DNA from: Chelativorans sp.
Lineage (GTDB): Bacteria > Pseudomonadota > Alphaproteobacteria > Rhizobiales > Rhizobiaceae
Direction of reading: 5' to 3'
Assembly (NCBI RefSeq): GCF_031180965.1
Contig: NZ_JAPSLH010000024.1
Coordinates: 1-64,000, forward strand
DNA: 64,000 nucleotides
A program made the position numbers and the translations under genes. Below are positions 2,069-53,515 of the stretch, one piece after another (positions within the stretch are counted from its first letter, which is position 1; every line of letters begins with the position of its first letter). The notes under the pieces are model-generated. The model saw nothing but the letters and a program-made list of their open reading frames with translations, was not told the origin of the DNA and did not search any database.

Positions 2069-2125
2069 GTGGTAGCGGAGGAGTGCTGCCGCCAATACAG
2101 TCCTGCAACCGAGTTCCTGTGTTAA
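2069..2125 (+). pseudogene. Fossil C-terminus of a large serine recombinase
   Basis: In one frame the bases encode VVAEECCRQYSPATEFLC and then TAA. The intact recombinase at 43910-45550 ends VVAEEGYRQYSPATEFVC, so 15 of 18 codons match. Similarity stops abruptly upstream of 2069. As with the intact gene, a tRNA-fMet 3' fragment follows within about 20 bases. This is the scar of a related integration module whose body has been deleted. Confidence 0.8.
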
Positions 2126-2143
2126 TATCATTGAAAAGGCGTT

Positions 2144-2169
2144 CAGGTTTAAATCCTGTCCCGCAACCA
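2144..2169 (+). other. tRNA-fMet 3' fragment, putative att site (left)
   Basis: The 26 bases match the T-arm and acceptor end of an initiator tRNA, including the terminal CCGCAACCA. One C is missing from the acceptor stretch relative to the fragment at 45591-45617. No 5' half of a tRNA precedes it, so it is not a functional tRNA gene. Its position right after a recombinase tail mirrors the right-hand site. It is best read as an attachment-site remnant at the left border of the catabolic island. Confidence 0.7.
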
Positions 2170-2253
2170 CTTCTGTCGTAACTCTCTGGAAGTTCAGTAT
2201 AACGTTGCATGCGGCAAATAGGTTGTGCCGAGTGTGGGCTGCGGGGCGCTCTC

Positions 2254-37852: not shown

Positions 37853-40140
37853 ATGCATATTGCTCATCTTGAAATCGCGAATTTTCGAAAATTGCTTTCG
37901 GTACGGATCGACCTGGCCGACAAGACCACGCTTCTTGTTGGCGCAAACAACAGCGGAAAGACCTCGGCCATGCTTGCGCTCCGCCGCTTTCTTACCAAAC
38001 GCGGCAGGACTTTCGAGAAGTACGACCTGACACTTTGCCACTGGGCCGGCATCGACGCCCTTGGACAAACTTGGATCGACGCCGAGGGAGCGGAGCCTCC
38101 GGACCTTGAGATGGACGCCTGGGTACCGTTCCTGCCTGTCCTCGACATCTGGTTCAACGTCGCCCCCAACGAACTGCACTTCGTAAGCAAGCTGGTACCC
38201 AAGCTCGACTGGACCGGCGGCAGACTCGGCGTGCGGTTGCGGCTCGAGCCGAAGGATATTCCGGCGCTCCATAAGGAATTCATGGAATCGTTCGCGAACG
38301 CGCAGAAGATGAAGGCCGCGATCCCAGCCCCGAGCGCCGAGCCCAGCGCGGCTCCCGCACGTGCCCCGAAGCTGACCCTGTGGCCGAGGTCGCTGATGGA
38401 TTTCTTGGAGCGACGCCTCAACGCGCATTTCGAGGTACGAGCTTACACGCTCGATCCGGATAAACTTGTCGAGCCCATTAACTCCTTGGCTCAACCCCAG
38501 CAGCTCATTGCCGGCATCCCGCCACATGAAGGCGACCCGCTTGCCGGCCTCATCCGGGTCGATGAGATCAGCGCGCAGCGGGGAATTGGCGAAGCCCATC
38601 GCGGCGACGACGAAGAGGGCGTATCATCGCCCGGAGGCCAAAGGCTTTCCGATCAGGTACGTGCCTACTACAGGCGGCACCTCGATCCATCGGAGCACCC
38701 CGATCCGGCCGATATCGGCGCGCTGCAGGCGATCGAAGAAGCGCAGGACGCGTTCGACCTGAAGCTTACGGAGAGTTTCAAGGATGCCTTCACCGAAGTT
38801 GAAACGATGGGCTATCCAGGGATCACCGATCCCAAGCCGCATGTCTCAACCCGGCTGAAACCCGTCGATGGCCTCAACCACCAGGCCGCCATTTCTTTCC
38901 AGGTGGACGTAGTGAAGGGGGATGGCGCGGTCGTGCCGGTGCTGCGATTGCCCGAGGGAAACAACGGCCTGGGGTACCAAAACCTCATCTCGATGATCTT
39001 CCGGCTGATGAGCTTCCGGGCCGCCTGGATGCGGGTGGGGAAAGCTGCCAAGGCACCGGATGCGGGCCAGTTGGAGCCCCTGCACCTCGTTCTGGTCGAG
39101 GAGCCGGAGGCACATCTGCACGCCCAGGTCCAGCAAGTCTTCATCAAGAAGGCCTACGAGGTTCTGCGAGCGCATGTAGACTTGGGAGACAACCCAGCGC
39201 TGTGTACGCAACTAGTCGTCAGCACGCATTCGAGCCATGTCGCCCATGAGACCTCCTACGACTGCTTGCGCTACTTCCGGCGCCTGCCGGCGGGTGTGAA
39301 CAAGGTGCAGATCCCGACCTCCGTGGTGATCAACCTGACCAATGCGTTCGGCGACGAGAGTGAAACCAAGCGCTTCGTCACGCGCTACCTTAGGGCGCAG
39401 CCTCCGATGTGTTCTTTGCCGACGCCGTGATACTGGTTGAAGGCTCCGCCGAGCGGATGTTCCTGCCCAATTTCATCGCGCGAGACTATGCCCGCGTGAA
39501 CCAGGGCTATGTGAGCATGCTGGAGGTCGGCGGCAGCCACGCGCATCGGTTGAAGCCACTGATCGATCTTCTCGGTATTACCACCCTCATCATTACCGAC
39601 CTCGACGCCCAGTTGGGCGAGGCCGTGCAGCCGAAGGTCGGCGAAGGCCAGGTCACCAACAACGATACGCTCAAATCGTGGTGGCCCAAGAAAACCGAGA
39701 TCGACGAGTTACTCGCGCCTGGTATCGACAAGGTGCTAAAGCAGACTGCCCTGCATGAAGTGCGCGTGGCCTACCAGACGCCGATCGATGTCGTCTGGCC
39801 CGAAGGCGCACCAACCCAGACGGCTATGCCCTACACCTTCGAGGACGCGCTCGCGTTCACCAACATGAAGTTCTTCTCCGAGCTCGAGGGTATCGGCCTT
39901 GTCGCCAAGTTCAGAGAGGCAATATCCGGTTCGGCAAGTGTGGCCGAGACCGGGGCGAAGCTCTTCCAGGCGCTTCGCAAAGGCGTAAAGGCCGAGTTCG
40001 CGCTCAACGTACTGGGGGCAGAGGGCTTCGACAAGCTCGCTGTGCCTGCCTACATCGCCGACGGACTTGCGTGGCTGAACGGGCAACTCGAGAAAAAGCA
40101 GATCGAGGTGCTGTCCACTGACCTGGGAGGCGACAAATGA
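37853..40140 (+). pseudogene. OLD-family ATPase / TOPRIM nuclease (GajA-like), one frameshift
   Basis: Two frames (37853-39430 and 39409-40140) make one protein of about 760 residues. The first has Walker A GANNSGKT at residue 30 and Walker B VLVEEPEAHLH near 416. The second begins FFADAVILVEGSAERMFLP, the first TOPRIM acid, then LIITDLDAQ, the metal-binding pair. Relatives read through this join without a break; here one base seems lost near 39395-39408 (RYLRA joins ASDVFFADA). OLD enzymes cut DNA in an ATP-controlled way. The UvrD-like helicase gene overlaps the end by 4 bases, the GajA-GajB order of Gabija. With the shift the nuclease part is lost unless the base is a sequencing error. Confidence 0.75.
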
Positions 40141-42046
40141 TTGCCGATCAGCTGGACGACGGTCAGCGGGACAAGAGGGCGGATGAGCTTATCCGGGGAT
40201 GCCTAAACCTGGACACGCCGCAAAGCTTCTTCCTTTTCGCAGGCGCGGGTTCGGGCAAGACGCGGTCGCTCGTCGATGCGGTCAATCATGTCCTGTCGAC
40301 CCCGAGCGGCAAGCGCTTAGCACTGGCGAGGCAGAAGGTTGGCGTTATCACCTATACGAATGCTGCATGCGACGAGATTGCCAGCCGTCTCAAATATGAC
40401 GCGCGGGTGGACATCTCGACCATCCACGCCTTCGCATGGTCGATGATTAGCGGATACAACGATGACATCCGGATGTGGGTCAAGGCCAATCTCGAAACCC
40501 GGATTGCTGAGCTTGAACAACAGATTGCCGGCACGAAAAATCAAGCCACAAAGACGCACCAGGACCGCGTCCGCTCCCTCGCGAGCAAGCGCCGGAGGCT
40601 AGCTGCCCTGTCGGGAGTGAAAAAGTTCATTTACAGCCCTACCGGTGACAACCAGACGCGCGACGCGCTCAATCACGCCGAGGTCATCTCGATTACTTCG
40701 GAGTTCCTGACGAATAAGCGGCTCCTGCAGTTGCTACTCATCTCGAGGTATCCGTTCCTCTTGGTCGATGAGAGCCAGGACACCAACCGGCACCTTATGA
40801 ACGCCTTGCTCACGGTACAGGCCGCGCATACCCGGACATTCGCGCTGGGCCTGCTTGGTGACACCATGCAGCGTATCTATGCGGACGGTAAGGTCGATCT
40901 GGGCAAGAACCTGCCGGGCTGGGTATTTCCCCAGAAGGTTATGAACCATCGCTGTCCACACCGGGTCATCAGGCTCATCAATCGAATTCGTGCCGATGCG
41001 GATGGCCTCGTGCAGGAAGGGCGGCGCGAAAAGCCCGAAGGGTTTGTCAGGCTATTCGCTCTTCCCGCATCCGTTCCGGACAAGATGATGGCGGAACGGC
41101 TGATCGCCCAGAAGATGTCGGAAGTGACTGGCGACCCGGCCTGGGCCTCAGCGGAGCGTGACTTCAAGACACTCACACTCGAACACCACATGGCGGCCGT
41201 CCGCTTCGGCTTTGCCCGGATGTTCGAGCCGATCTATGCCGAGGACAGGCTGCAGACGTCGCTGCTCGAGGGAACATCGGCACTCTTCGCTTCTTCAGCA
41301 AGGAGGTCTTGCCGCTCGTCAAGGCGCTCCGTGCCGAGGATGACTTCGCCGTGGCAGCGGTGGTGCGGAAGTTTTCGCCACTGCTCGATCCCGCCGCGCT
41401 CAAGGCAACCCAGGAAAAGCAGATGGAGCAGCTAAAGCGCGCCAACGAGGCGGCCCGTAGCCTGAAAGCCATCGTAGACAGCGCGCAGAACCCAACGTTC
41501 CGAGACGTACTCCAGGAAGTTGCTCGAACCGGTCTCTTCACCGTTCCGGACGCGTTGCTTCCCTTTGCGCAGCCCGACGATCCCGGAGTTGTGGATCAAG
41601 AGCCGAGCGATGGTGGGCCGCCCGAGGTCTTTGATACCTCCGAGACAGCCGCGTGGCGGAGCATGCTGGCTTCGCCGTTCGACCAGATAGAGGCTTATGA
41701 CCAGTACGTGAGCGGGCGATCGCCATTCGGCACGCATCAAGGGGTCAAGGGGCTGGAGTTTCCTCGGGTCATGGTCGTCATCAGTGACGATGAAGCACGA
41801 GGGTTCCTGTTCAAGTACGATAAGCTTTTCGGCCTCGAGCAAAAAAGCGCTACCGATCTGAAGCGAGAAGCAAGCGGCGAGGAAACAAGTATCGATCGGA
41901 CCCGGCGGCTCTTCTACGTCACCTGCAGCCGTGCCGAAGAGAGCCTTGCCATTGTGTGCTACACCTCGAATCCGCAGGGGCTGGTGAACACCGTCATTTC
42001 GCGCGGGTGGTTCGACGGTACCGAAGCGTCGGTGTTTGCCCTGTAA
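40137..42046 (+). pseudogene. UvrD/Rep-type helicase (GajB-like), one frameshift
   Basis: Superfamily 1 helicase motifs appear in order: motif I GAGSGKT at residue 36, TNAACDEIASRL (Ia), STIHAF, motif II LVDESQDT near 207, GDTMQRIYADG (III) and NHRCPHRVIRLI (IV). A shift near 41275-41285 moves to a second frame (FFSKEVLPLVKALRAEDD) that holds the rest: THQGVKGLEFPRVMVV (V) and RRLFYVTCSRAEESLAIVCY (VI). Total length would be about 636 residues. Its ATG overlaps the nuclease gene stop, so the two are co-translated. In Gabija the helicase partner senses DNA ends or nucleotide depletion and activates the nuclease. Both partners being frameshifted suggests a dead system or sequence errors. Confidence 0.75.
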
Positions 42047-42291: not shown

Positions 42292-42528
42292 TCACGCTCG
42301 GCGTGCGAGCCGCACGCCTGGCCCTCCGCCATTCTCTGGAATGAACTCGACACCAGCCGCCTGGAGAGAAAGCACAAGGGCCTGGACGATCGATGCGGAT
42401 ACCGATCCTGCATCCCGCTCTGCCTGCACAATAGTCCGCAAACTTACCTTCGATAGATCCGCCAATTCTTGCTGAGAAATATCGAGAAGTGCACGGGCAG
42501 CGCGAATTTGAGCGGGGGTCACTTTCAT
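42292..42528 (-). CDS. Small XRE-family regulator of the left integration module
   Basis: A 78-residue helix-turn-helix protein: TPAQIRAARALLDISQQELADLSKVSLRTIVQAE, then a tail GVEFIPENGGGPGVRL. The start is ATG 42528; an upstream extension overlaps the promoter of the divergent gene. The same tail occurs in the regulator of the right module (48679-48906). It probably represses the divergent 42650 gene and itself through TTTGC-N9-GCAAA, which lies over that promoter. Confidence 0.85.
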   Translation of the reverse strand: MKVTPAQIRAARALLDISQQELADLSKVSLRTIVQAERDAGSVSASIVQALVLSLQAAGVEFIPENGGGPGVRLARRA

Positions 42529-42544
42529 TGTCCACGTGATCTCG

Positions 42545-42563
42545 TTTGCACAAAAAGCGCAAA
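42545..42563. promoter_or_regulatory. Inverted repeat TTTGC-N9-GCAAA over the -35 region
   Basis: Perfect 5-base arms spanning the -35 box and spacer of the promoter at 42546-42575. Likely operator of the divergent XRE regulator. Confidence 0.45.
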
Positions 42564-42575
42564 TCTGCCTATAAT
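42546..42575 (+). promoter_or_regulatory. Sigma-70-type promoter of the left Tat-like protein gene
   Basis: TTGCAC, 18 bases, then TATAAT. This is close to consensus and 75 bases before ATG 42650. Transcription would start at about 42583, at the edge of the GCTGCTG inverted repeat. Confidence 0.6.
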
Positions 42576-42583
42576 GCGAAAAG

Positions 42584-42616
42584 GCTGCTGAAGGTGTTCT
42601 GACCACCGCCAGCAGC
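42584..42616. promoter_or_regulatory. Conserved inverted repeat in the 5' leader (left module)
   Basis: GCTGCTGAAGGTG and CACCGCCAGCAGC form imperfect arms (11 of 13 pair) around 7 bases. The equivalent gene of the right module has a 33-base repeat of the same length and sequence type at 48570-48602, also just ahead of the ribosome site AAGGAGCTCGGATC. It could be an operator or an RNA hairpin in the leader. Confidence 0.55.
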
Positions 42617-42649
42617 TTAACCACAACCAAGCTTCAAGGAGCTCGGATC

Positions 42650-43351
42650 ATGGCTGATTCCGACAATACCACGAGTTTGTCTTTCGTCACCCGCAGGCGA
42701 GTGCTTGCTGGATCGGTTATCGCGGCCGGTACATGGGCGTCTCCGGGCAATGCACTTGCCCACTTCTCCGCGGTGGAGCAGGAGCTTTTGGACCCGGCGC
42801 TTGCGCTTTGGCGCGAATGGGAGATCGCGCACAGGCTCGCGGAGCGGCTTTGCCGCAAGCAACAGCGTCTGGAAACGAAGCTGGCGAGGAGCATCGGTTT
42901 TCCGCGGGTTATCGTCTCCCTGCCTGACGGTGAGCGCGTCACCGTCCATTCTGTCGATGAGCTCGATGAGCTGTTTGACCAGAATCCTGGTTTCTACGCG
43001 ATCCGTGCGAAGGCAGAAGCGGAATTCGCGGCTCACCAGGCTCGATGGGACGCCGCCGACGCGGAGGTTGGCTATTCCGCTGCCCTCCGCGCCGAGCGGG
43101 AAGCTGGAGAGCAGGCGGCGGAGCTGCTGGAGGCGTTGGCAGTAACACCCGCAACATCGCTCGCGGGCATTGCCGGCAAGCTGGATGCCGTGCTGCGCTC
43201 GGGAGAGGCGTGGGAGGATTGTTCCGAATTTCCCTGGCCACAAATCAGATCCGCGCTCAACGACTTGGTTCGCGTGGGCGAACATTTGGCGCCGGGCCAA
43301 TTCTTTCCCAGTGCGCGGAGGCGGCGTGCGCGGCAATGTTCCGAAGGATAG
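42650..43351 (+). CDS. Unknown protein with twin-arginine-like N-terminus (left module)
   Basis: A 233-residue protein not matched to any family I know. It opens MADSDNTTSLSFVTRRRVLAG followed by a hydrophobic, Ala/Gly-rich run, like a Tat signal with cleavage near NALAH. The mature part is helical and charged: ERLCRKQQRLETKLAR, an acidic segment with VTVHS, KAEAEFAAHQARWDAAD, and a tail FPSARRRRARQ. The right module has a paralogue (47854-48534) with clear identity throughout. It lies between a divergent XRE gene and the recombinase gene, behind a strong promoter. Role unknown; it may also be a cytoplasmic factor whose RRR motif is coincidental. Confidence 0.7.
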   Translation: MADSDNTTSLSFVTRRRVLAGSVIAAGTWASPGNALAHFSAVEQELLDPALALWREWEIAHRLAERLCRKQQRLETKLARSIGFPRVIVSLPDGERVTVHSVDELDELFDQNPGFYAIRAKAEAEFAAHQARWDAADAEVGYSAALRAEREAGEQAAELLEALAVTPATSLAGIAGKLDAVLRSGEAWEDCSEFPWPQIRSALNDLVRVGEHLAPGQFFPSARRRRARQCSEG

Positions 43352-43377
43352 GCTGGGGCTCCTTCGGGGATGAGCGC

Positions 43378-43504
43378 TGTCTGCTTCCCGTCAGCAGGCC
43401 GGACCGGAACCAGCCCGTCAAGGCCGCAGCCGCTTCGCGGTGGCGCGTGCCGCGCCAGCCTTGACCGGCTGGTTCCGGCCCGGCAAAGGCTGGGGAAGCA
43501 GACA
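43378..43504 (+). repeat. 127-nt hairpin element, left module
   Basis: Outer arms TGTCTGCTTCCC and GGGAAGCAGACA, and inner arms GGAACCAGCCCGTCAAGGC and GCCTTGACCGGCTGGTTCC (one interruption), fold into one long stem. A 38-base stretch at 43410-43447 is identical, in inverted orientation, to 47761-47798 in the right module's hairpin. It begins 27 bases after the stop of the Tat-like gene. It may be a terminator-like or REP-type element, or a structured RNA. Confidence 0.7.
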
Positions 43505-43685
43505 AGGCTCCCCTCCGAGCGGCATCGCTCTCGACCTCGGCGCTCTGCGACTGCTGTGGTCACTGCGGTCCCGCAATGGCAGCACGCTCTCTGTGGCTTC
43601 GTGCAGGTTGTCCGTTGCGCACGCCGGAGCACCCGCGCTCCACGATGGCGGCGCGGAGCCACTTCCCTGGCCTTCTGCCATCATC

Positions 43686-43913
43686 ATGCTCGGCGCCATG
43701 CAGTCGGCGTCAGGCAAAAACGATCCTCGTTCGACGGACAGCACTGCGGCACCCGCCGCGCTGCCCGCGTTGGACAAAGACATGCTTGCGTTCGTTGAAG
43801 CTCTTGCAGTCGCCGACGCCAGACGCGATCATCTTGCATCGATCCGCCATCCTGCGCCGCGCGATCCCGCTTCCGAAAGCGCCGGCCAAACAAGCGAGAT
43901 GATCGACAAATGA
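43686..43913 (+). CDS. Small protein upstream of the left serine recombinase
   Basis: A 75-residue frame ending in TGA that overlaps the recombinase start (ATGA at 43910). The predicted protein has a helix around ALPALDKDMLAFVEALAVADARRDHLA and a disordered, Ser/Pro-rich tail. ATG 43686 or 43698 are both possible. The right module has a small gene in the same place. It may be an accessory or directionality factor; that is only position-based inference. Confidence 0.5.
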   Translation: MLGAMQSASGKNDPRSTDSTAAPAALPALDKDMLAFVEALAVADARRDHLASIRHPAPRDPASESAGQTSEMIDK

Positions 43914-45550
43914 CACGTGCTGCCATTTATGCCCGGTTCTCGACCGAACTGCAGAATGAAAAGTCCACCGAGGACCAGATCGCCCTGTGCCGAGCCCACG
44001 CGCGGCGCGGCGGCTTGGATGTGGTTGCCGTCTATGAGGACAAGGCGCGCTCCGGTGCGTCCGTCTTTGGCCGCGACGGGCTGATGAGCCTCATGGAGGC
44101 GGCGCGCCAGCGTGCCTTCGAGGTCGTGGTGGTGGAAGCACTCGATCGCCTGTCGCGCGACATGGAGGATTTGGCCGGCATTCACAAACGGCTGTCGTTC
44201 CTCGGTATCGAGATCCAGGCCGTGCACGATGGGACTGCCGATGCGATCTTGGTCGGGCTTCGCGGCCTTGTCGGCCAGTTGCAGCGCGAGGACGGCGCCA
44301 AGAAGGTGCGCCGCGGTATGGCGGGCGTCGTGCGCAGCGGGCGACATGCCGGCGGCAGGGCCTACGGCTACCGGCCTGTTCCGGGCCGCCCGGGCGAACT
44401 GGAGATTGTTGAAGAGGAGGCGCGCGTCGTCAGGCGCATTTTTTCCGCCTATGCCGCCGGCCAGGCACCCCGCGACATCGCCGGGGCGCTCAATCGTGAA
44501 GGGATCGCGCCGCCGCGTGGGGCGCGCTGGAACGCCTCGACGATCAACGGTAATGCGCAGCGCGGCGCCGGGCTGATCTTCAACGAGCTTTATGCCGGGC
44601 GCATCGTCTGGAACAAGGTGCGGATGGTGAAGAACCCCGACACCGGCAAGCGCCTTTCCAGGCCGAACCCGAAAGATCAGTGGCAGGTAATCGAGGTGCC
44701 GCAGCTTCGCATCGTCGATGACGAGACCTGGCGGTGCGCGCAGGAGATCAAGGCCGAGAAAGCACGTCTGGGTTCTCACATGAAGCGCCGGCCACCGCAC
44801 CTCCTCTCGGGGCTGCTGCGTTGCGGCTGCTGCGGATCGGGCATGTCGGTGCACGATCGCGACAAGACCGGCAAGACACGGGTTCGCTGCTCGGCCGTCC
44901 GCGAGAGCGGCACTTGCTCGAATCGCAGGATCATCTATCTCCCGGAAATCGAAAAGGCGGTCCTCGACGGCATGCGGGAGCAGCTCAAGGACCCCCGCCT
45001 GATTGAAGCCTACGCGCGCAAATACAACGAGGAACGCCGACGACTCGCGGGCGAAGCCGCCGACAGGCGTTCACGGCTGGAGACGAAGCGGACACGCGTC
45101 GAAGGCGAGCGGCAGCGCACGGTCGATCTCGTCATCCGGGGTGTCATCGGCGACGACGATGCCAGAATGCGCATCGCAGAACTCAAGCAGCAGCGAGAAG
45201 AGATCGACGCGGAGCTCGCCCAAGTCGATGCAGAGCCTCCGGTGATCACGCTGCATCCCGCGACCCTGGAGCGATACATCGAGACTGTCGATGCGCTTGC
45301 CGGGGCATTGGCCGATCACGCGGCAGCCTCAGAGGAGCGCGGGCCTCTCGTCCAGAGCTTTCGGGCATTGGTTAATAGTGTGACTGTACATCCAAAAGGC
45401 GCCCGGGAAGGCTTTGAAATCGAAGTCAAAGGCAAGCTAGCCGCCTTGATTGGAGGCAAGGCGTTTCCCCAGGCGCGCTATAGTGGGGGACGCGTGGTAG
45501 CGGAGGAGGGCTACCGCCAATACAGTCCTGCCACTGAGTTTGTGTGCTGA
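43910..45550 (+). CDS. Large serine recombinase (left module)
   Basis: A 546-residue site-specific recombinase. The resolvase domain has YARFSTE with catalytic Ser 11, EDQIALCRAHA, and EALDRLSRD with the catalytic Arg pair. The Recombinase domain follows from about residue 145 (GGRAYGYRPV, RRIFSAYAAGQAPRDIAGALN). A zinc ribbon is at about 305-345 (CGCCGSGM ... CSAV ... CSN) and a coiled coil lies near 360-440. These enzymes integrate and excise islands at short att sites. The gene ends 21 bases before the tRNA-fMet fragment at 45572, its presumed target. Its frame is intact, so the island to its left may still be mobile. Confidence 0.92.
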   Translation: MTRAAIYARFSTELQNEKSTEDQIALCRAHARRGGLDVVAVYEDKARSGASVFGRDGLMSLMEAARQRAFEVVVVEALDRLSRDMEDLAGIHKRLSFLGIEIQAVHDGTADAILVGLRGLVGQLQREDGAKKVRRGMAGVVRSGRHAGGRAYGYRPVPGRPGELEIVEEEARVVRRIFSAYAAGQAPRDIAGALNREGIAPPRGARWNASTINGNAQRGAGLIFNELYAGRIVWNKVRMVKNPDTGKRLSRPNPKDQWQVIEVPQLRIVDDETWRCAQEIKAEKARLGSHMKRRPPHLLSGLLRCGCCGSGMSVHDRDKTGKTRVRCSAVRESGTCSNRRIIYLPEIEKAVLDGMREQLKDPRLIEAYARKYNEERRRLAGEAADRRSRLETKRTRVEGERQRTVDLVIRGVIGDDDARMRIAELKQQREEIDAELAQVDAEPPVITLHPATLERYIETVDALAGALADHAAASEERGPLVQSFRALVNSVTVHPKGAREGFEIEVKGKLAALIGGKAFPQARYSGGRVVAEEGYRQYSPATEFVC

Positions 45551-45571
45551 GGCAACGGCTGCAGGCTTCAC

Positions 45572-45617
45572 GCTCATAACCTGAAGGTCACAGGTTGAAA
45601 TCCTGCCCCCGCAACCA
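45572..45617 (+). other. tRNA-fMet 3' fragment, att site shared by two recombinase modules
   Basis: 46 bases match the 3' half of an alphaproteobacterial initiator tRNA. They run from the anticodon loop (CTCATAA) through CCTGAAGGTC, the T arm and the acceptor to CCGCAACCA. Bases upstream do not match the tRNA 5' half, so this is a fragment. Two recombinase genes point at it from both sides. It is the likely right border of the island starting at 2144 and the left border of the next island. Confidence 0.85.
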
Positions 45618-47271
45618 TTGATCCCGACACTCCCGAACGTTTTGTTCTGGGAATGTTCTTGTTTCCAGGTTTTTCAACGCCTTCAGCCCCAAGCCAGGCC
45701 AGGATCGCGCCAAGCTCGCCGTGCAGCGTGATCTCCATCTCGCCCCGCTTTGCGCCAGGAATGAGCGTCACGCGTTCGATGAGGGCGCGGATCGCCTCGG
45801 CCGCTTCCAGCTGATCTTCCGGGTGCTGCAGAGCCGCCGCGAGGCGCTCGACCTTGCGCCGGTATATTTGCCCAACGTTTGGATGAATTTCAGGAAGTGG
45901 ATTGCTGGCGCCTGCCATTTCATCGCGCAGCGCGTCCTGCTTTACCTCAAGGTCCCGTAAACGATCCATCAGAAGGCGCGTATACCCGCCGCCCTCGATG
46001 ATATCCAAGATTTCCTTGATTGCCCGATCGACCTTCGCCAGCTCCGCGCGGGCACGTTCCAGCCTGGCGCGGCGCTCGCGGTTAAGTTGGTTGGTCTCTT
46101 CGGCATAGGCGCGCAGGGCTGCTTCGGCAGCATCGGGCGCCATGATGCGGTCTCTGAGGCCGGTGAGCACGCGCTCTTCCAGGGCTTGGCGAGCGATCGT
46201 ATGGCCGTTGCCGCAGGACCTGTTCGTGATATGCGCCGAGCAGGCGAAGCGGGCTTGGCCACGCAACGAGCATGGCCCGCCGCAGACACCACAATGGACC
46301 AGACCGGACAGAAGGCTTTTCGGCCGCTGCATGCTGCCGAGCGGGTTCCTCCTGTGATGCTCGCGTACCGCGGCGATGACCTTGGCGTGCTTCTCGGCGA
46401 TCTCGTTCTGTTTCGCCTTCACCGCTTGCCAGAGCGCGTCATCGACGACGCGCAGCGCTGGCACTTCGGTAACGATCCACTTCTCCGGAGGATTGAGGCG
46501 CGAGACGCGCTTCCCTGTCGCCGGATCCTTCACATATCGCTGCCGGTTCCAGACCAGCCGGCCGATATAGAGCTCGTTGTTGATTAAGCCGGTTCCGCGC
46601 TTGGCATGACCTCGGATTGTTGTGTCATTCCATAGGTTTCCGTCAGGGCCGGCGATGCCTTGTTCGTTGAGTTCGCGCGCGATGCCGCGGGGTGACATAC
46701 CAGCCGCGAACTTGCGGAAGACGCGGCGGACGATTTCGGCCTCTTCCGGCACGATCTCGCGATCGCCGCGAATGAGTTCGCCGTTGGCGTCGTGCTTATG
46801 GATCGCCCGATAGCCGTAACACAGGCCTCCGCCGGACTTGCCCTTCTCGACCCGGCCTCGCAGCCCGCGATGCGTCTTCATCGCGAGGTCCTTGAGAAAC
46901 AGCGCGTTCATCGTGCCCTTGAGGCCGACGTGCAGCTCGGTAATCTCACCTTCCGCCAGCGTGACGATGGTCACGCCGGCGAACTTCAGGTGTTTGAAGA
47001 GCGTGGCGACGTCTGCCTGATCGCGCGAAATGCGGTCGAGCGCTTCGGCCAGCACGACCTGGAACTGCCCGCACTGCGCGTCGCGGACCAGCTTCTGAAT
47101 GCCGGGGCGAAGAATTGTGCTCGCCCCGGAGATCGCCGCATCCTGATAGGTGCCCGCAACCTGCCAGCCCTCGCGCGCCGCGTGCTCGCGACATAGCCGC
47201 AGTTGATCCTCGATGGAGGCTTCCCGCTGGTTGTCCGAGGAGTAGCGGGCGTAAAGGGCTGCGCCGGGCAT
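45574..47271 (-). CDS. Large serine recombinase (right module)
   Basis: A 565-residue recombinase. Ser 11 lies in YARYSSDNQ, with IEDQLRLCREHA and EALDRISRD completing the catalytic domain. GGLCYGYRAI and RRVFRKFAAGMSPRGIARELN mark the Recombinase domain. The zinc ribbon is CGVCGGPC ... CSAH ... CGN, and a coiled coil follows. The last 14 residues (MVAGAGFQPVTFRL) and the stop are translated from the antisense strand of the tRNA-fMet fragment; the TGA comes from the anticodon loop. Such att-encoded tails let integration rebuild the gene end. It is related to, but clearly diverged from, the left recombinase. Frame intact. Confidence 0.92.
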   Translation of the reverse strand: MPGAALYARYSSDNQREASIEDQLRLCREHAAREGWQVAGTYQDAAISGASTILRPGIQKLVRDAQCGQFQVVLAEALDRISRDQADVATLFKHLKFAGVTIVTLAEGEITELHVGLKGTMNALFLKDLAMKTHRGLRGRVEKGKSGGGLCYGYRAIHKHDANGELIRGDREIVPEEAEIVRRVFRKFAAGMSPRGIARELNEQGIAGPDGNLWNDTTIRGHAKRGTGLINNELYIGRLVWNRQRYVKDPATGKRVSRLNPPEKWIVTEVPALRVVDDALWQAVKAKQNEIAEKHAKVIAAVREHHRRNPLGSMQRPKSLLSGLVHCGVCGGPCSLRGQARFACSAHITNRSCGNGHTIARQALEERVLTGLRDRIMAPDAAEAALRAYAEETNQLNRERRARLERARAELAKVDRAIKEILDIIEGGGYTRLLMDRLRDLEVKQDALRDEMAGASNPLPEIHPNVGQIYRRKVERLAAALQHPEDQLEAAEAIRALIERVTLIPGAKRGEMEITLHGELGAILAWLGAEGVEKPGNKNIPRTKRSGVSGSMVAGAGFQPVTFRL

Positions 47272-47294
47272 CTCGTTCCGTCCTTTGCGTCTGG

Positions 47295-47528
47295 CTAGCT
47301 TGTATTGTGCGTGTTGCTCTCGTTGGTTCCTGGCGGGCGCCCCTCCGGCGGCTGCGTTGGCCGGTTGTCGTTTGCGGCGACAAGCTTCTCGAACTCCTCG
47401 CGCGCGATCCGGCGACCGATCAGCCGGGCAAGGGCGAGCACGGCATTCCTGATTTTCTCTCCGGGTGTTGATGCAGTATTGTCGGAATGATCGTTCCTGT
47501 CATCACTGGACTGCAACTGTTCTTCCAT
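47295..47528 (-). CDS. Small protein upstream of the right serine recombinase
   Basis: A 77-residue protein: a polar N-terminus, a helix KIRNAVLALARLIGRRIAREEFEKLVAANDN, and a Pro/Asn-rich tail. The AANDN motif is frequent in small alphaproteobacterial proteins encoded next to recombinases. It ends 23 bases before the recombinase start, the same place as the small gene in the left module, though the sequences differ. Confidence 0.6.
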   Translation of the reverse strand: MEEQLQSSDDRNDHSDNTASTPGEKIRNAVLALARLIGRRIAREEFEKLVAANDNRPTQPPEGRPPGTNESNTHNTS

Positions 47529-47703
47529 CGCGACCTCACTTCCGTTTGCGGTGGAACGGGAATGAAGCCGCGAAAGCGGCTGGCCGGGAAGTCTCAGAAA
47601 CAACGCGTCGTACCGCGGCGTGCAAATACCTGCGCAATTCGCTCGCCAACAGGCGAGGAGGCACCGCTCGCCGAAGATGGAGCGACATCGCTCGCGCCGG
47701 TAC

Positions 47704-47829
47704 CTTCTGCTTCCAAAGCATACGCCGGACGGGAGGCAGCCGGTCAAGGCTGGCGCGGAACGCGCCACCGCGAAGCGGCTGCGGCCTTGACGGGCTGGCT
47801 CTCGTCCGGCCTCCTGAGGCAAGCAGAGG
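47704..47829 (-). repeat. 126-nt hairpin element, right module
   Basis: Arms around CTTCTGCTTCC / GGCAAGCAGAGG and GGTCAAGGC / GCCTTGACGGGCTGG fold into a long stem. Bases 47761-47798 are the exact reverse complement of 43410-43447. It starts 25 bases after the stop of the Tat-like paralogue, as in the left module. Confidence 0.7.
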
Positions 47830-47853
47830 CTGCCACGCCGGGAGATCCACCAC

Positions 47854-48534
47854 TTATGTTGCGGTGCGTCTGCGCCGGGAGCTCGGGAAGGAATTTGCGG
47901 ACGCAGTCTTCTCACCGATCTGCAGCAGGTCATCGAGTGCGGAACGGATGAGCGGCCATGGGAATTCGTCGCACTCTTCCCACGCTTCGCCGGTTCGCAG
48001 CACGGCGTCGAGCTTGCCCGCCACCCCCATGAGTGACCGAGCCTCCGTCGCAGCCAGCTCTTCCAGCAGATGCTGCGCCCTTTTGCCGGCCCGCAGCTCC
48101 GCTTGCAGTGCAGCGGAATAACCGATCTCATGGTCGGCGGCATCCCAGCGCGCCTGATGTGCCGCAAACTCCGCCTCCGCCTTGTTGCGGATGTCTTCGG
48201 CTTCCAGCCTATCACCCAGCACCCAGTTGAGCGCCTCGAGCGAGTGCACCGTAACGTCGTCTTCGCCGGGAATGCGGACAACGGCACAAGGAAAGCCAAT
48301 TGTTCTTGCAAGCCTGGTCTCAAGCCGTTGCTGCTTGCGGCAAAGCCGCTCGGTCCGTTTTTGGGCTGCATCCCACCGCCGCCACAGCGCCACAGCGGGA
48401 TCGGCTGATTCCGCCACGGCATTGGCGTTCGCGCCATGAGAGGGCGCCAGAACGATTGGCACAATTGCCGTCCCAGCAAGCACTCGCCTGCGGGTGACGA
48501 AAGGCAAAGTCGTGGTATTGTCGGAATCAGCCAT
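47854..48534 (-). CDS. Unknown protein with twin-arginine-like N-terminus (right module)
   Basis: A 226-residue paralogue of the 42650-43351 product. Shared stretches include MADSDNTT, FVTRRRVLAG, ERLCRKQQRLET, KAEAEFAAHQARWDAAD, GYSAAL, AGKLDAVLR and EFPWP. The N-terminus again looks like a Tat signal with a hydrophobic core (TAIVPIVLAPSHGANANA). The body is helical and ends in an Arg-rich tail. Conservation in both modules across recombinases that have diverged more suggests a needed role in the element's life cycle. Family unknown to me. Confidence 0.7.
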   Translation of the reverse strand: MADSDNTTTLPFVTRRRVLAGTAIVPIVLAPSHGANANAVAESADPAVALWRRWDAAQKRTERLCRKQQRLETRLARTIGFPCAVVRIPGEDDVTVHSLEALNWVLGDRLEAEDIRNKAEAEFAAHQARWDAADHEIGYSAALQAELRAGKRAQHLLEELAATEARSLMGVAGKLDAVLRTGEAWEECDEFPWPLIRSALDDLLQIGEKTASANSFPSSRRRRTAT

Positions 48535-48569
48535 TGATCCGAGCTCCTTATAGCTTGGGTTGTGGTCAG

Positions 48570-48602
48570 GCTGCTGAAGGTGGTCGCAACACCGTCAGCA
48601 GC
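48570..48602. promoter_or_regulatory. Conserved inverted repeat in the 5' leader (right module)
   Basis: GCTGCTGAAGGTG and the facing CACCGTCAGCAGC form imperfect arms around 7 bases, matching the 33-base repeat at 42584-42616 of the left module. It lies between the divergent XRE and Tat-like genes. Confidence 0.55.
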
Positions 48603-48613
48603 CGCGCACAAAT

Positions 48614-48628
48614 CGTATCATAGATACG
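48614..48628. promoter_or_regulatory. Putative XRE operator 1, CGTATC-ATA-GATACG
   Basis: A perfect 6-3-6 palindrome located where the -10 region of the minus-strand Tat-like gene would fall (TACGAT/TATGAT). A related site follows 48 bases later. Confidence 0.55.
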
Positions 48629-48661
48629 GTAATCCGAGTGGACGGCTAGATCAACAGAAAT

Positions 48662-48676
48662 CGTATCACTGCTACG
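48662..48676. promoter_or_regulatory. Putative XRE operator 2, CGTATCACTGCTACG
   Basis: Shares ATCGTATCA with operator 1 and ends two bases before ATG 48679 of the XRE gene. Binding here would block transcription or translation of the regulator itself. Confidence 0.45.
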
Positions 48677-48678
48677 AA

Positions 48679-48906
48679 ATGAATGCGATCCAATGTAAAA
48701 TGGCACGTGTGGCACTTGGGTGGGGGACGCGAGATCTAGCTCGATTTGCTGATGTTTCGCCCGACACTATTGCGCGGCTTGAACGCGGTGAGCGCCTGAA
48801 GGAGAGCACAGTCTCAGCTATTCGCTTGGCTTTCGAGAATGCTGGAATTGAATTCATTCCAGAAAACGGCGGTGGGCCAGGCGTAAGGCTGAAGAGGCCA
48901 GTCTGA
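48679..48906 (+). CDS. Small XRE-family regulator of the right module
   Basis: A 75-residue protein: MARVALGWGTRDLARFADVSPDTIARLERGE is the helix-turn-helix and GIEFIPENGGGPGVRL the shared tail of this class. It is divergent from the Tat-like gene and flanked by two CGTATC-type operator sites. The start may be ATG 48679 or ATG 48700; neither has a good ribosome site, so translation could be leaderless. It is the counterpart of the left regulator at 42292-42528. Confidence 0.83.
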   Translation: MNAIQCKMARVALGWGTRDLARFADVSPDTIARLERGERLKESTVSAIRLAFENAGIEFIPENGGGPGVRLKRPV

Positions 48907-48946: not shown

Positions 48947-50270
48947 CTAGGCCGCCAGCCACACTTCGTTCAGGATTTTGGCCGCGAGCGCAGCTTTGTC
49001 CTGCGGGAGGAAGCGCCCATAATGTTCCGCGACCGTCTCGGGCGTGTCCTGGATCGCGTAGCTGGCCTGCTCGTACGAGCCCGTCTTCTTGAGGATGTGC
49101 GTTGCGAGGACATCGCGCACGTTGTGTGGCCCATGAGGAAGCAGACCCTTGATAGCGCCTCTTTCGGTATAGGGATTGTAGATGCCGTAGCGCTGGATGA
49201 TCAGCCGCCAGGCTTCATAGAACGTGTTCTGGTCGTACTCAGCCGTCGCGCTGCTCGTCTTGACGGTCTTCACGAAGAAGGTCCCCGGGTCCGCCGCGCC
49301 GGCCAGAAGACGCGCGCGATGGCGATCAACATAGGCTTCCAGGTGGCAGTAGAGATCGCCGATATCCGGCAAGACCAGCCGGAACGGCTTGTTGCCGAAA
49401 ATAGGATGAATTGGCGTTCTTGAAGGCGATTGCCGGGATGAGCACCTCCCAGCCGCTCTCCCGCTCGCTCCAGCGAATTTCTCCTCGCTTCATGTCCATA
49501 AGCTGGCGTTCCGTTCTTGGCGTGCCGCCTCTCGGGCATAGCAGCAGCTGCCGGAGGTTTTTCTGGCGCACGCCGAGATGCAGGCCCAGGCGGATCATGA
49601 GGAAGGAGCGGATTGCTTCTGCCGCGCTGCGCGGATAGCGCCGCTCGTCGGGCATCAATCGCATAATCTCGTCCGCGATCTTTCGGTACTCGCCCACCGG
49701 GCTCTCCGCCTCAAGCACCGCCAGAATCGGCTCGAACGGATCGCGGTGCACCTTGGCGACGCGCTGAACCTCTTTGATGCGGCCGGCGCAATGCTTGTGG
49801 CAGACGTCGCATGCCGCATTCCAGTCACGCCGGGCGGCCGTGATTTCCTCGCGCGAGATCAGCCCTGCAATCGGAACGAGATGATCGGCGAGATGGGGAC
49901 TCTGCCGCAACCAGCCGGTCTCAGTCCGCGTCAGCGCCATGGCGATCCGCAGCATGTCGACCTCCCAAGCAGTGAAGAAGCCGCGCCGCTGCTCCCGCCA
50001 CTGCAGATACCAATCCCATACGGCCGGGAATACCAGGAGGCCGAAGGTGAGCGATTGCAATGGCACGCCACGCCCGCGAACGGCGCTACCTGGAGATGCC
50101 GTCAGGGCACCAAAGAGCAAGCCGAGATGCTCGACCTTCTGCGAGGCCGTCTCCTGGCCCCAGACGCCCAGCCGCTGATACCCGAATGCCGCGAGCGTTG
50201 CCGTCTTGAAGCTCAACAGCTCCGCCATCTCGCTGCGAAGCCGTGCAGGCGCGTCGACCGTCCTTGTCAT
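48947..50270 (-). pseudogene. Tyrosine recombinase, one frameshift
   Basis: Frame one (49326-50270) holds a helical N-terminal region, a CDVCHKHC zinc-like motif and the first catalytic Arg in GLHLGVRQKNLRQLLL. It then reaches IAFKNANSS. Frame two, from about 49400, continues FGNKPFRLVLPDIGDLY. It then carries HNVRDVLATHILKKTGS (the H-x-x-R box) and TVAEHYGRFLP with the nucleophile Tyr. Dropping one T from TTTT near 49399-49402 restores a single frame of about 440 residues. It is a large integrase of the kind found in alphaproteobacterial islands. Either decayed or a homopolymer sequencing error. Confidence 0.75.
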
Positions 50271-50432
50271 GACCGACGCGTCGGTTTCCCCATCGTTGTC
50301 AAGGTCGAGCAGAGCGCTCCTGCCTCCGCGCGAGCCCCTGTCCGTCCTGCAACAAACCCGGGAAGCGCACCGCGAAACGGTGCTTCATGGCCGCTGCCTC
50401 GAAGCGGCGGTAGTCGGTCGAACCCGAGATGA

Positions 50433-51281
50433 TCACCTAGCGAACCAGTTCAGGATTTCTTCCTGCTCCGCGGAAGATCGCTTCTCGAAATCGTCTGGCA
50501 GGTGCCACGCCAGCCGCCGCCGCTCAGCGCTGGAGATTCCGGCGGGCTGGTGGCCGGATGCGGAGTGCTGCTTGTTCGGCAGCTTGTTCTTGAAATAGCC
50601 GGGTGGCAGCCGGTATCGCCGTTCGATCCGGCCGAGCACCTCCAAGCTCTCAACGCTCCGCGGCGCCCGAGTTCCCCTTATCCACGTCAGCAGCGTCTTC
50701 CTGTCGAACAATTCCCCGGGGCGCACCACGGCCCGGTACAAATACCAGCAGTTGTCGCCATGCCGTTCCATGTGTAGCCGCAGGGCTTCAGGAAACGTTT
50801 CCGGGTCTTGCCAACTCGTCCACTTCGGCTCTGGGAATTCAACAATGGGTTTCGGCTTCGCGCCTCTGCGCGCGCCGCCGGGGCGGCGGGCAGGCGGATC
50901 AGCTCGCACGTTCTCCGGCTTTGCCTCGGGCCGCGCTTCTACCGGGGCGCTAGCTCGCCCCCTCTTCGTGTGCCGCGCTGGCGCTGCTCTGGTTCTCCCG
51001 CTGCTCGGGCGCCGCCCGAGGTAACGCGTGATGGCATCGAAGCTTGGCTGCAGGACCCGGGATGCGGCGAGAAGCACGTTCGGCTCGATCTCGCATTCAT
51101 CGCCGACAAGGGCCCAGTCGACCGCCTGCCCGCGCCTCGGCGGCAACAGCTCCTCTTCGATGAGCCTTAGCAGGTAGAGACGTAGATTCTCCAGCTCGCG
51201 CGGCGGCAGAACCATGGCCGCCCGGGACCGCACGAAGTCGGAGATCATCCGAGAGAAGGTCGAATGGTTGGAAACTGTCAT
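50433..51281 (-). CDS. Unknown protein upstream of the tyrosine recombinase
   Basis: A 282-residue protein. It has a helical N-terminus (FVRSRAAMVLPPRELENLRLYLLRLIEEELL), a long basic, Pro/Ala-rich linker at about residues 95-145, and a C-terminal region EAERRRLAWHLPDDF-like with NWFAR at the end. In another frame after the stop come VIISGSTDYRRFEAAAMKHRF, which look coding, so the gene may have lost its true end to an indel near 50432. Same strand as the recombinase and 160 bases ahead of it. Probably an accessory protein for integration. Confidence 0.55.
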   Translation of the reverse strand: MTVSNHSTFSRMISDFVRSRAAMVLPPRELENLRLYLLRLIEEELLPPRRGQAVDWALVGDECEIEPNVLLAASRVLQPSFDAITRYLGRRPSSGRTRAAPARHTKRGRASAPVEARPEAKPENVRADPPARRPGGARRGAKPKPIVEFPEPKWTSWQDPETFPEALRLHMERHGDNCWYLYRAVVRPGELFDRKTLLTWIRGTRAPRSVESLEVLGRIERRYRLPPGYFKNKLPNKQHSASGHQPAGISSAERRRLAWHLPDDFEKRSSAEQEEILNWFAR

Positions 51282-52180: not shown

Positions 52181-53515
52181 GTGAGGGGGATGAGGACTCA
52201 TAAGTTCGTAGATTTGTTCGCTGGCTGCGGCGGCCTATCGCTGGGACTCTCCCTAGCCGGCTTGCGAGGCCTTTTTGCCATTGAACGGGACGCGATGGCA
52301 TTTGAAACCTTTGCAGCAAATTTCAGGTCTGAGTGTCCGCTGGCCGATCTCGAATTCGAATGGCCATCTTGGCTGGAGCAGCGGGCCTGGGGGATTGAGG
52401 AGTTGCTTGAGGAGCATCTGTCCCAGCTTAAGCAATTACGCGGCATCGTTGATGTCTTGGCAGGTGGTCCTCCGTGCCAAGGATTCAGTTTCGCTGGGCG
52501 GCGAGTGGCGGATGATCCAAGAAATCTCCTTTTCCAGAAGTATGTGGAAGCCGTTGATGCGATCCGGCCCAATGTGCTGATTCTTGAAAACGTACCCGGT
52601 ATGCGGGTCGTCCATCGACCATCTAATGTGGTGGAACTTCCGTTGGGGCCGGCGCCAACGAAACGTTCCTTCTACGACAAACTCGTGGAAAGCTTGGACC
52701 TGATCGAATATGACGTTCAGGCCGTACTGCTTGATGCGTCGCGCTTCGGCGTGCCCCAGAAGCGGTCGCGACTCATCGCTATCGGCGTGCGGAGAGATCT
52801 GCTCCAGTGGCTCGATGGTGGTATTGATCGCGTCTTCACGCTCTTGGAGCAGGCCCGCGAGATGCAGCTTATCGAGCTTGGGCTAGCCGAGACGATTTCC
52901 GCCTCCGAGGCCATTTCAGATCTGGAGACCACCGGCGCGTCGCTCCACGCTTGCGAAGATCCCGAATCGCCGCGCGGGTTTCTGGAAGTGCGCCGCGGTG
53001 AGGCAACGACAGGGTACCAGCGACTGATGCGCGGCGGCGCCAACCAGTTGCCCAACAGCATGCGCCTTGCTAGACACCGAGACGATGTGCGCGATCGCTT
53101 TGCCCGCATCCTTGCGGAATGCCGGCGAGGTGTTCGCATGGATGACGAGTCGCGTCGCGGTTACGGTTTGAAGAAGCACCGCATATATCCGCTTTCAGCG
53201 ACTAGCCCCGCGCCAACCATCACGACGCTACCAGACGACGTGCTACACTACTCCGAGCCACGCATCCTTACAGTTCGCGAAAGCGCACGGCTCCAATCGT
53301 TTCCCGACTGGTTTCAATTCAAAGGCAAGTTTACGACGGGCGGCGATCGGCGGACAAAGGAATGTCCACGATACACTCAGGTTGGTAATGCTGTGCCGCC
53401 GTATCTAGCCCGCGCGATCGGAGCTGCACTTCGCAGGGCGCTCGAGGAGATTGAGGTTGCGAGGGAGGCGTTCGGCCAAGAGGGCCAACACCATCCCATA
53501 GCTGCATGCAGGTAG
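52181..53515 (+). CDS. DNA (cytosine-5) methyltransferase (DruM/Dcm-like)
   Basis: A 444-residue C5 methyltransferase. Motif I VDLFAGCGGLSLG at the start binds S-adenosylmethionine. Motif IV GGPPCQGFS near residue 98 holds the catalytic Cys, and motif VI ILENVPGM near 133 the Glu. Motif VIII QKRSRL is near 194. Motif X QVGNAVPPYLARAIG is near the end, with a variable target-recognition region at about 260-350. The start may be GTG 52181 or ATG 52190. A Vsr-type nuclease gene follows, as usual for cytosine methylases. Ahead of a DruE-like helicase it matches the methylase found in type II Druantia. Recognition sequence unknown. Confidence 0.9.
   Translation: MRGMRTHKFVDLFAGCGGLSLGLSLAGLRGLFAIERDAMAFETFAANFRSECPLADLEFEWPSWLEQRAWGIEELLEEHLSQLKQLRGIVDVLAGGPPCQGFSFAGRRVADDPRNLLFQKYVEAVDAIRPNVLILENVPGMRVVHRPSNVVELPLGPAPTKRSFYDKLVESLDLIEYDVQAVLLDASRFGVPQKRSRLIAIGVRRDLLQWLDGGIDRVFTLLEQAREMQLIELGLAETISASEAISDLETTGASLHACEDPESPRGFLEVRRGEATTGYQRLMRGGANQLPNSMRLARHRDDVRDRFARILAECRRGVRMDDESRRGYGLKKHRIYPLSATSPAPTITTLPDDVLHYSEPRILTVRESARLQSFPDWFQFKGKFTTGGDRRTKECPRYTQVGNAVPPYLARAIGAALRRALEEIEVAREAFGQEGQHHPIAACR

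What the first reader, a model, noticed from the sequence alone, without database searches (positions are those of the whole stretch)
42292..48906. Two related integration modules in mirror image around one tRNA-fMet fragment
Both sides of 45572-45617 carry the same ordered set: XRE regulator, divergent Tat-like protein gene with a shared leader, long hairpin, small gene, large serine recombinase pointing at the tRNA piece. The proteins are diverged, the hairpin core is identical. This is not a simple inverted duplication. It looks like two separate islands of one family that met at the same target. The full module, with its unknown protein and hairpin, appears not to be a standard textbook integration unit.
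Basis: partly seen in the sequence, partly recalled or inferred. Interest (0 to 1): 0.85.

Follow-up and report, generated by a model that had tools for sequence, protein, structure and literature searches.

The report
Antisense-RNA cassettes at tandem tRNA islands
Where two mobile DNA islands abut in a rhizobial chromosome, each carries a recombinase gene beside a separate small cassette whose protein appears to be kept off by a repressor and by a short RNA made from the opposite strand; the RNA resembles known plasmid-control and toxin-control RNAs and turns up across this bacterial class in front of different proteins.

Summary
The mirror-image layout is real: two XRE / Tat-like / palindrome / small ORF / large serine recombinase (LSR) modules, diverged in every gene, face a 3' tRNA-fMet piece. 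Reading it as one integration unit fails. The palindrome goes with the LSR (13 of 15 loci). The XRE/Tat-like pair is a separate cassette: in 61 genomes 8 of 20 Tat-like loci lie near an LSR (far above chance, yet a minority). The leader also fronts unrelated proteins and occurs in other orders of the class. Best reading: a doubly repressed (XRE plus antisense RNA), toxin-antitoxin-like cassette on tRNA islands. Antisense transcription and protein function are inferred, not shown.

The parts
42292..42528 (-). XRE-type repressor A (start at ATG 42528 rather than the listed TTG 42630)
   Evidence: ORF; HTH_3 E 9.3e-7; ATG and sequence
42547..42575 (+). sigma-70-like promoter of the Tat-like gene A (TGCACA-17-TATAAT), overlapping a TTTGC..GCAAA inverted repeat (possible XRE operator)
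   Evidence: 1 found, shuffles mean 0.1; sequence; operator role inferred
42583..42656 (-). predicted antisense RNA A, about 74 nt, covering start codon and Shine-Dalgarno of the Tat-like gene and ending in the covarying stem
   Evidence: model R1 117.4 bits; RF00043 at 42582-42657, 29.8 bits, E 0.0021; covariation; G.U/A.C; ends inferred
42663..42690 (-). predicted antisense promoter A: -35 GTGACG (42690-42685), 16 nt, extended -10 TGnTATTGT (hexamer 42668-42663)
   Evidence: T27 G28 T30 A31 T35 invariant in 67 leaders, -35 TGACG at 90% or more; the simple sigma-70 scan does not list it
42650..43351 (+). Tat-like protein A, 233 aa, no known family
   Evidence: without a usable match; AlphaFold2 pLDDT 82
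43391..43502 (.). palindrome A, Y-shaped, fixed core
   Evidence: -102 kcal/mol for 137 nt
43698..43913 (+). small ORF A, 71 aa, ATGA overlap with LSR A
   Evidence: sequence; no family
43910..45550 (+). large serine recombinase A
   Evidence: Resolvase, Recombinase, Zn ribbon; phrog_95 integrase
45494..45546 (.). att-type element: elongator tRNA-Met 3' end (antisense TGGTAGCGGAGGAGGG) joined to CTACCGCCAATACAGTCCT; copy at 2069-2121
   Evidence: comparison with intact tRNA-Met on contig 48
45572..45617 (+). 3' tRNA-fMet piece; its antisense encodes the end of LSR B (MVAGAGFQPVTFRL)
   Evidence: intact tRNA in L006
45574..47271 (-). large serine recombinase B
47295..47528 (-). small ORF B, 77 aa
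   Evidence: sequence; no family
47706..47817 (.). palindrome B
47854..48534 (-). Tat-like protein B, 226 aa
48494..48521 (+). predicted antisense promoter B: GTGACG (48494-48499), 16 nt, TATTGT (48516-48521)
   Evidence: sequence; alignment; not listed by the simple scan
48528..48603 (+). predicted antisense RNA B, about 76 nt
   Evidence: model R1 125.5 bits (a training sequence of R1); RF00043 at 48527-48604 in mRNA orientation, 33.6 bits, E 2.3e-4; ends inferred
48679..48906 (+). XRE-type repressor B (ATG 48679), preceded by two CGTATC..TACG-type inverted repeats (48614-48628, 48662-48676), possible operators
   Evidence: operator role inferred
2069..2170 (.). left counterpart: tRNA-Met-type att element 2069-2121 plus degenerate fMet-like 3' piece 2143-2170
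   Evidence: a flank with tRNA-adjacent relatives ends just before it; the fMet-like piece read by eye

Best explanation
The locus is a junction in a tandem array of genomic islands at a tRNA-Met hot spot. Each mirrored module is two separable things side by side. (1) A serine-integrase unit: Y-shaped palindrome, small ORF and an LSR whose last codons run antisense into a tRNA-Met or tRNA-fMet 3' end, so the recombinase gene is completed by its own attachment site. (2) A repression cassette: a divergent XRE gene and a gene for an unknown helical protein whose translation start is covered by a ~75-nt cis-antisense RNA, made from an extended -10 promoter on the opposite strand inside codons 5-14 and ending in a covarying stem. 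By analogy with SymR and R1162, the antisense RNA pairs with the Shine-Dalgarno/AUG region and blocks translation while XRE represses transcription. Such double repression fits an addiction (type I toxin-antitoxin-like) or transfer-control gene on mobile elements. Shown by sequence: architecture, separability, RNA covariation and its strand bias, the tRNA overlaps. Inferred: antisense transcription, translational block, XRE operators, protein function, order of islands across contig breaks.
For: Antisense RNA: in 67 leaders the stem has 93.7% standard pairs (slid controls 32-48%) and a covariation score of 0.654 against 0.253 in shuffles. Imperfect pairs are G.U in the antisense strand (89 against 23 A.C; rows 44 to 8, sign test 4e-7); 77 distinct leaders, weak stems included, give 98 against 26. 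Extended -10 TGnTAnnnT invariant and -35 TGACG at 90% or more. RF00043 full length at both modules (E 0.0021, 2.3e-4) and SymR RF01809 at a distant leader on the antisense strand (37.7 bits, E 4.8e-6). The leader stays intact where its frame closes and the main ORF goes on in another (L018, L019, L044, L045, L046, L048) and fronts unrelated proteins. Distribution, own genome included: 31 of 397 genomes of the order sample, 9 of 289 of the class sample; and 3 of 3 plasmid loci fetched for their Tat-like gene. Separability: and 24 with 82. tRNA overlap of LSRs: contig 48, L014, L033, L035, L039, L134.
Against: No RNA data were examined: the antisense transcript, its ends and its effect are predictions. 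The Rfam matches to these leaders lie below gathering scores (55 and 61). The -35 is weak and the simple promoter scan finds neither antisense promoter, nor a sense promoter for module B. The stem is not followed by a clear T-run, and the one terminator-like site listed on the antisense strand of module A (42646-42627, shuffles mean 0.3) lies inside the predicted RNA, before the stem. Of the five measures, the number of pairs with changes on both sides (11 of 13) is not above shuffles (mean 9.9; 129 of 500 as high). Thinned to 19 dissimilar stems, the strand bias is 11 to 4, p 0.12. A divergent XRE homologue was not detected in 12 of 51 and 9 of 30 loci. Toxicity is untested. The island order across contigs 48 and 36 is not proven, because the assembly breaks.
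Confidence: 0.65

Rival explanations
1. The palindromic stem before the Tat-like gene is a DNA operator for the divergent XRE protein (or a sense mRNA leader), and no antisense RNA exists.
For: It sits between divergent genes just downstream of the sense promoter; DNA palindromes also show paired changes; stems vary as operators of diverging repressors would; after strict thinning the strand bias is not significant (p 0.12).
Against: Excess of A.C over G.U on the mRNA strand argues against a sense hairpin (98 to 26), and a DNA operator predicts no strand bias; other inverted repeats are candidate operators (inference); an invariant extended -10 lies on the opposite strand; SymR matches a distant leader in antisense orientation.
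Confidence: 0.19
2. One reading: XRE + Tat-like + hairpin + small ORF + LSR is one integration unit and the Tat-like protein is a recombination factor.
For: Tat-like loci are enriched near LSRs: 8 of 20 against about 0.05-0.08 expected; the three Tat-like copies of this genome all have XRE, palindrome and LSR.
Against: Most Tat-like loci have no LSR nearby (44 of 51 and 23 of 30 without one within 3 kb); LSR+palindrome occurs without Tat-like genes (5 loci) and with the pair flipped (L130-L132); the 92.5% identical XRE-Tat-palindrome block is joined to two different LSRs in one genome.
Confidence: 0.08
3. The conserved N-terminus reflects a protein function (Tat export or a localisation tag), not an RNA.
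For: VTRRxxLxG followed by an uncharged stretch in about half of the family (25-29 of 55); distant leaders L171, L179, L187, L205 also encode RR motifs.
Against: Third codon positions are conserved about as strongly as the others in the first codons; members without a Tat signal keep MADSDNTT (for genome-contig loci partly by construction of the search); the leader persists when out of frame with the main ORF.
Confidence: 0.07

Closest known systems
SymR / symE (E. coli type I toxin-antitoxin; Rfam RF01809)
   Same: short cis-encoded antisense RNA against a gene that is also repressed transcriptionally; abstract and passages of PMC1891008 seen: SymE repressed by LexA, SymR and Lon; the model hits a distant leader on the antisense strand
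   Different: XRE in place of LexA; the target protein shows no match to a SymE/AbrB family; the SymR model does not hit the window leaders; toxicity unknown
R1162/RSF1010 IncQ plasmid antisense RNA (Rfam RF00043)
   Same: 75-nt model aligns end to end with both window leaders: stem, CCUAACCAC, GGAG, AUC-AUGGCU
   Different: 29.8-33.6 bits against a gathering score of 55; islands and varied plasmids; target not recognisably a replication gene. The model matches the mRNA strand; its true orientation was not checked (one search failed)
repABC ctRNA of rhizobial plasmids
   Same: antisense control of a mobile-element gene in Rhizobiales (passages of PMC5596092)
   Different: lies between repB and repC; no ctRNA model matched the two window leaders
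Large serine integrases of phages and islands
   Same: Resolvase + Recombinase + Zn-ribbon domains; phrog_95 integrase
   Different: C-terminus encoded by the tRNA attachment site in several members; palindrome and small ORF upstream

Membership tests
Large serine recombinase | Resolvase, Recombinase and zinc beta-ribbon domains | tested here: met
   both proteins above Pfam cut-offs for the three domains
Large serine recombinase | integration at a defined attB with excision | not testable with these tools
   tRNA overlap and a direct copy of the att element seen; no circle or activity data
SymE/SymR type I toxin-antitoxin | cis-antisense RNA overlapping the start of the toxin mRNA | tested here: inconclusive
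   strong covariation and strand bias; transcript not shown
SymE/SymR type I toxin-antitoxin | SymR model score at the gathering cut-off | tested here: not met
   no SymR hit in the window leaders; 37.7 of 61 bits at L180
SymE/SymR type I toxin-antitoxin | SymE protein family | tested here: not met
   no Pfam/NCBIfam family in 55 members beyond isolated weak hits
SymE/SymR type I toxin-antitoxin | toxicity of the protein | not testable with these tools
   no assay
R1162-like antisense RNA RF00043 | score at the gathering cut-off (55) | tested here: not met
   29.8 and 33.6 bits; 36.8 at best elsewhere (L177)
R1162-like antisense RNA RF00043 | controls a plasmid replication operon | tested here: not met
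   in the window the gene under the leader has no family match and is followed by a small ORF and an LSR; one plasmid copy stands beside repABC
Tat substrate | twin-arginine motif plus hydrophobic stretch | tested here: inconclusive
   25-29 of 55 family members by simple patterns; both window copies carry RR

The most novel reading that the evidence does not exclude
A portable antisense-RNA control cassette runs through mobile elements of Alphaproteobacteria: one RNA design (promoter hidden in the first codons, fixed Shine-Dalgarno/AUG core, free stem) is joined to many unrelated proteins, akin to R1162 and SymR RNAs. Because the core that covers SD and AUG is nearly identical in the Tat-like copies, each copy's RNA could silence the others in trans, so resident islands would repress the corresponding gene of incoming ones: RNA-based immunity between islands.
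Probability: 0.25. Interest if true: 0.8.

Novelty: new variant of a known kind. Interest (0 to 1): 0.6.

Why it matters
It explains a set of unannotated 'MADSDNTT' proteins of Rhizobiales by an RNA rather than a protein motif, links two antisense RNAs treated as separate Rfam families (R1162 and SymR) to a widespread alphaproteobacterial set, and gives a directly testable control layer for tRNA islands that carry defence genes (a Gabija-like operon lies beside module A). It also shows recombinases whose final codons are supplied by their own tRNA attachment site.

Tried and rejected
Junction at tRNA-fMet: replaced by an elongator tRNA-Met core after the contig 48 comparison. Sense-strand hairpin before the Tat-like gene: rejected by the G.U/A.C count. 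Tat export as reason for the conserved N-terminus: weakened. Fold of the Tat-like protein: no match in PDB or BFVD with E up to 0.001, two weak sequence hits (E 0.084 and 0.87). Palindrome as a marker of the Tat-like gene: rejected; as a structured RNA its strand was not settled, since the stem count was noisy (A.C 49, G.U 25, 139 other). One plasmid carries it beside toxin-antitoxin genes with no LSR among the annotated genes within 4 kb.

Biases and dropped rows. The genome-contig loci were sought partly with the peptide MADSDNTT, so its conservation there is by construction; the HMM-found genomes are not so biased. The 20 loci / 8 near an LSR were matched by hand from the place lists (handles G000-G060), joining pieces of one gene; own genome included (without it 5 of 17). 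Expected number by position: 106 LSR matches (sum of the match column) in about 266 Mb (sum of rounded sizes) give about 0.05; with the LSR density of the ten Tat-bearing genomes about 0.08. Leaders: of 83, 73 remained after thinning at 90%, of which 67 were aligned; I left out L011, L053, L055, L127, L128 and L146, three of which (L055, L127, L128) had poor stems, so the 93.7% is somewhat flattering; one search has the weak stems in. Module A's leader fell to the thinning, being close to contig 48's. In one search the stem finder clearly missed the leader stem in several loci (such as L176, L178, L181, L182) and L174 gave none. Own contig 43's copy of the left flank has no tRNA beside it, and three more matches (own contig 55, G281:C31, G682:C8) were not looked at.

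Literature: searches gave no report of this RNA or cassette in their listings; only listings were seen except passages of PMC5596092, PMC1891008, PMC3616915 and PMC5082802. The library lacks most subscription papers, so prior description cannot be excluded. PtaRNA1, another plasmid antisense RNA family, was recalled from memory and not tested.


Full report
OBSERVATION. The two modules exist as described. As inverted DNA they match at 68.5% over 930 nt with E 2.5e-84. Gene by gene they have diverged: XRE 39%, Tat-like 61-62%, LSR 41%, palindrome 91% over 87 nt. The central piece 45573-45617 is the 3' half of a tRNA-Met(cat) of initiator type (type by recalled features); the intact gene lies on contig 31, followed there by a broken copy of LSR B (95% over 955 nt).

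A THIRD COPY AND THE TRUE TARGET. The genome holds a third Tat-like gene on contig 48. There XRE, Tat-like gene and palindrome are 92.5% identical to module A over 1297 aligned positions, but the LSR is another one (43% to A; 49% to B). That LSR ends antisense inside an intact elongator tRNA-Met. The same is seen in L014, L033, L035, L039 and L134. LSR A in the window runs into the same tRNA end (TGGTAGCGGAGGAGGG) at 45494, followed by CTACCGCCAATACAGTCCT, the reverse complement (one base apart) of the arm that precedes the core on contig 48; a copy of this composite lies at 2069-2121. An att site with inverted arms is what a serine integrase would use (recalled knowledge). The DNA left of 2069 resembles an element end that in 7 of the 8 relatives' loci looked at lies next to a tRNA 3' end (Phe, Gln, Thr, Arg), though not in the copy on own contig 43. 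The simplest reading is a tandem array at tRNA-Met: island C (contig 48, its far end carrying LSR B), island A (2.1-45.5 kb), then a third island. The join of contigs 48 and 36 is inferred. The fMet piece belongs to LSR B, whose last 14 codons or so it encodes.

THE MODULE COMES APART. Of 51 loci of genome contigs with a Tat-like relative, 39 have a divergent XRE homologue and 7 an LSR within 3 kb; of 30 loci from family genomes, 21 and 7 (L119 and L126 are LSR remnants; two of the 30 repeat loci of the first set). These sets were fetched by similarity. A fairer sample is the 61 genomes searched for both: 20 Tat-like loci, 8 near an LSR (matched by hand; 5 of 17 without the own genome). With 106 LSR matches in about 266 Mb, 0.05-0.08 would be expected. 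So the association is real but not obligatory. The palindrome is tied to the LSR: of 15 loci with it, 13 have an LSR (in L119 a remnant) and 9 a Tat-like gene; several of these loci were fetched because of the palindrome. In L130-L132 it lies between XRE and LSR because the pair is flipped. Of 52 plasmid records with a Tat-like match three were opened: one has an LSR downstream and traA upstream, one stands beside repABC, one near neither. The phage collection gave no match.

THE LEADER. The 82 leaders listed share a nearly fixed core around the start codon, GGAGCTCGGATC ATG GCT GAT TCC GAC AAT ACC ACG ACT TTG, third codon positions included, and a variable stem before it. In six distinct loci the leader is intact although its frame closes and the main ORF continues in another (L018, L019, L044, L045, L046, L048). 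The stem shows strong covariation: 93.7% standard pairs, score 0.654 against 0.253 in shuffles and at most 0.166 in slid controls; the plain number of pairs with double changes is not above shuffles. Related sequences inflate shuffle tests. Its imperfect pairs are A.C on the mRNA strand, that is G.U on the opposite strand: 98 to 26 in 77 leaders, 89 to 23 in the alignment of 67, 44 rows to 8; after thinning to 19 dissimilar stems 11 to 4, p 0.12. A folded RNA therefore most likely comes from the opposite strand. In that orientation the columns T27 G28. T30 A31 ... T35 are invariant and TGACG stands 16 nt upstream: an extended -10 promoter inside codons 5-14. The predicted RNA runs from about codon 3 to the end of the stem, 74-76 nt. 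Six distant matches begin at model position 39-43, near the predicted start. Against this: the simple scans list neither antisense promoter, and a terminator-like site on the antisense strand of module A lies before the stem.

KNOWN RELATIVES. RF00043, the 75-nt antisense RNA of R1162-like plasmids, aligns end to end with both window leaders at E 0.0021 and 2.3e-4, under its gathering score. RF01809, SymR, matches the distant leader L180 on the antisense strand at E 4.8e-6, also under its score. These E-values are for stretches of 191-321 bases; over 20 loci at once the L180 match has E 0.0015. The window as a whole gives no hit at gathering scores.

SPREAD. Model R1 finds the element in 31 of 397 genomes of the order sample (18 of 142 genera) and 9 of 289 of the class sample (8 of 224 genera), own genome included, with up to six copies in one genome. 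Under several of the weaker matches the ORF is not a Tat-like relative by HMM: L170, L172, L173, L177, L178, L182, L185 and L188. These matches are weak (32-59 bits), and a few may be chance. The distant stems also favour G.U over A.C in antisense orientation (27 to 9), but the model itself was built in that orientation and the stem finder failed in some.

THE PROTEIN. No Pfam, NCBIfam, PADLOC or PHROGs family (isolated weak hits only), no solved relative (best E 0.084). AlphaFold2 gives a helical protein with a beta hairpin and a low-confidence stretch over the first 40 residues (pLDDT 82); Foldseek gives nothing at E 0.001.

MECHANISM. XRE represses the Tat-like promoter (inferred); the antisense RNA pairs with SD and AUG (inferred by analogy with SymR). 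Such double locks are typical of toxins or of replication and transfer functions on mobile elements (recalled knowledge). I favour an addiction or transfer-control gene; which of the two is open.

VERDICT. Observation right, unit wrong, target half right. The more interesting object is the antisense-RNA cassette: a new variant of a known kind, with a bolder reading (portable cassette and cross-silencing between islands) not excluded.

Noticed in passing
window 37853-42046: A Gabija-like defence operon beside module A: GajA (E 2e-183) and GajB (E 2e-150) each lie in two overlapping ORFs, so both genes look broken or misassembled.
   Followed up: partly
window 29702-31795: MobA/VirD2-type relaxase with DUF3363 inside island A, which suggests a mobilizable island.
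   Followed up: partly
window 36818-37576: FRG-domain protein, weakly like the PADLOC candidate PDC-S15, next to the Gabija genes.
   Followed up: no
window 48947-51281: Three ORFs right of module B, the first ending like a tyrosine recombinase (reading by eye), without Pfam matches above cut-off; part of this region recurs beside the broken LSR B on contig 31.
   Followed up: no
window 52181-53515: Cytosine-5 DNA methyltransferase.
   Followed up: no
L139 8127-9677 (contig 20): Another LSR reaching the contig end, running into a TGGTAGCGGAGGAGCGC site like that of LSR A.
   Followed up: partly
window 43391-43502, 47706-47817: The palindrome folds as a long stem with two inner hairpins, a Y shape (-54 to -102 kcal/mol among clear copies), 0.1-1.7 kb upstream of LSR genes; role unknown.
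   Followed up: partly
window 43698-43913, 47295-47528; L202 7627-7854: A small ORF just upstream of, or overlapping by four bases, the LSR gene; a candidate directionality factor; the two window copies match no known family.
   Followed up: no
L154 7640-9053: Two Tat-like genes in tandem, with a second, weaker copy of the RNA leader at 8370-8464.
   Followed up: no
L204 5929-11063: On a Bosea plasmid the cassette lies just upstream of repABC.
   Followed up: no
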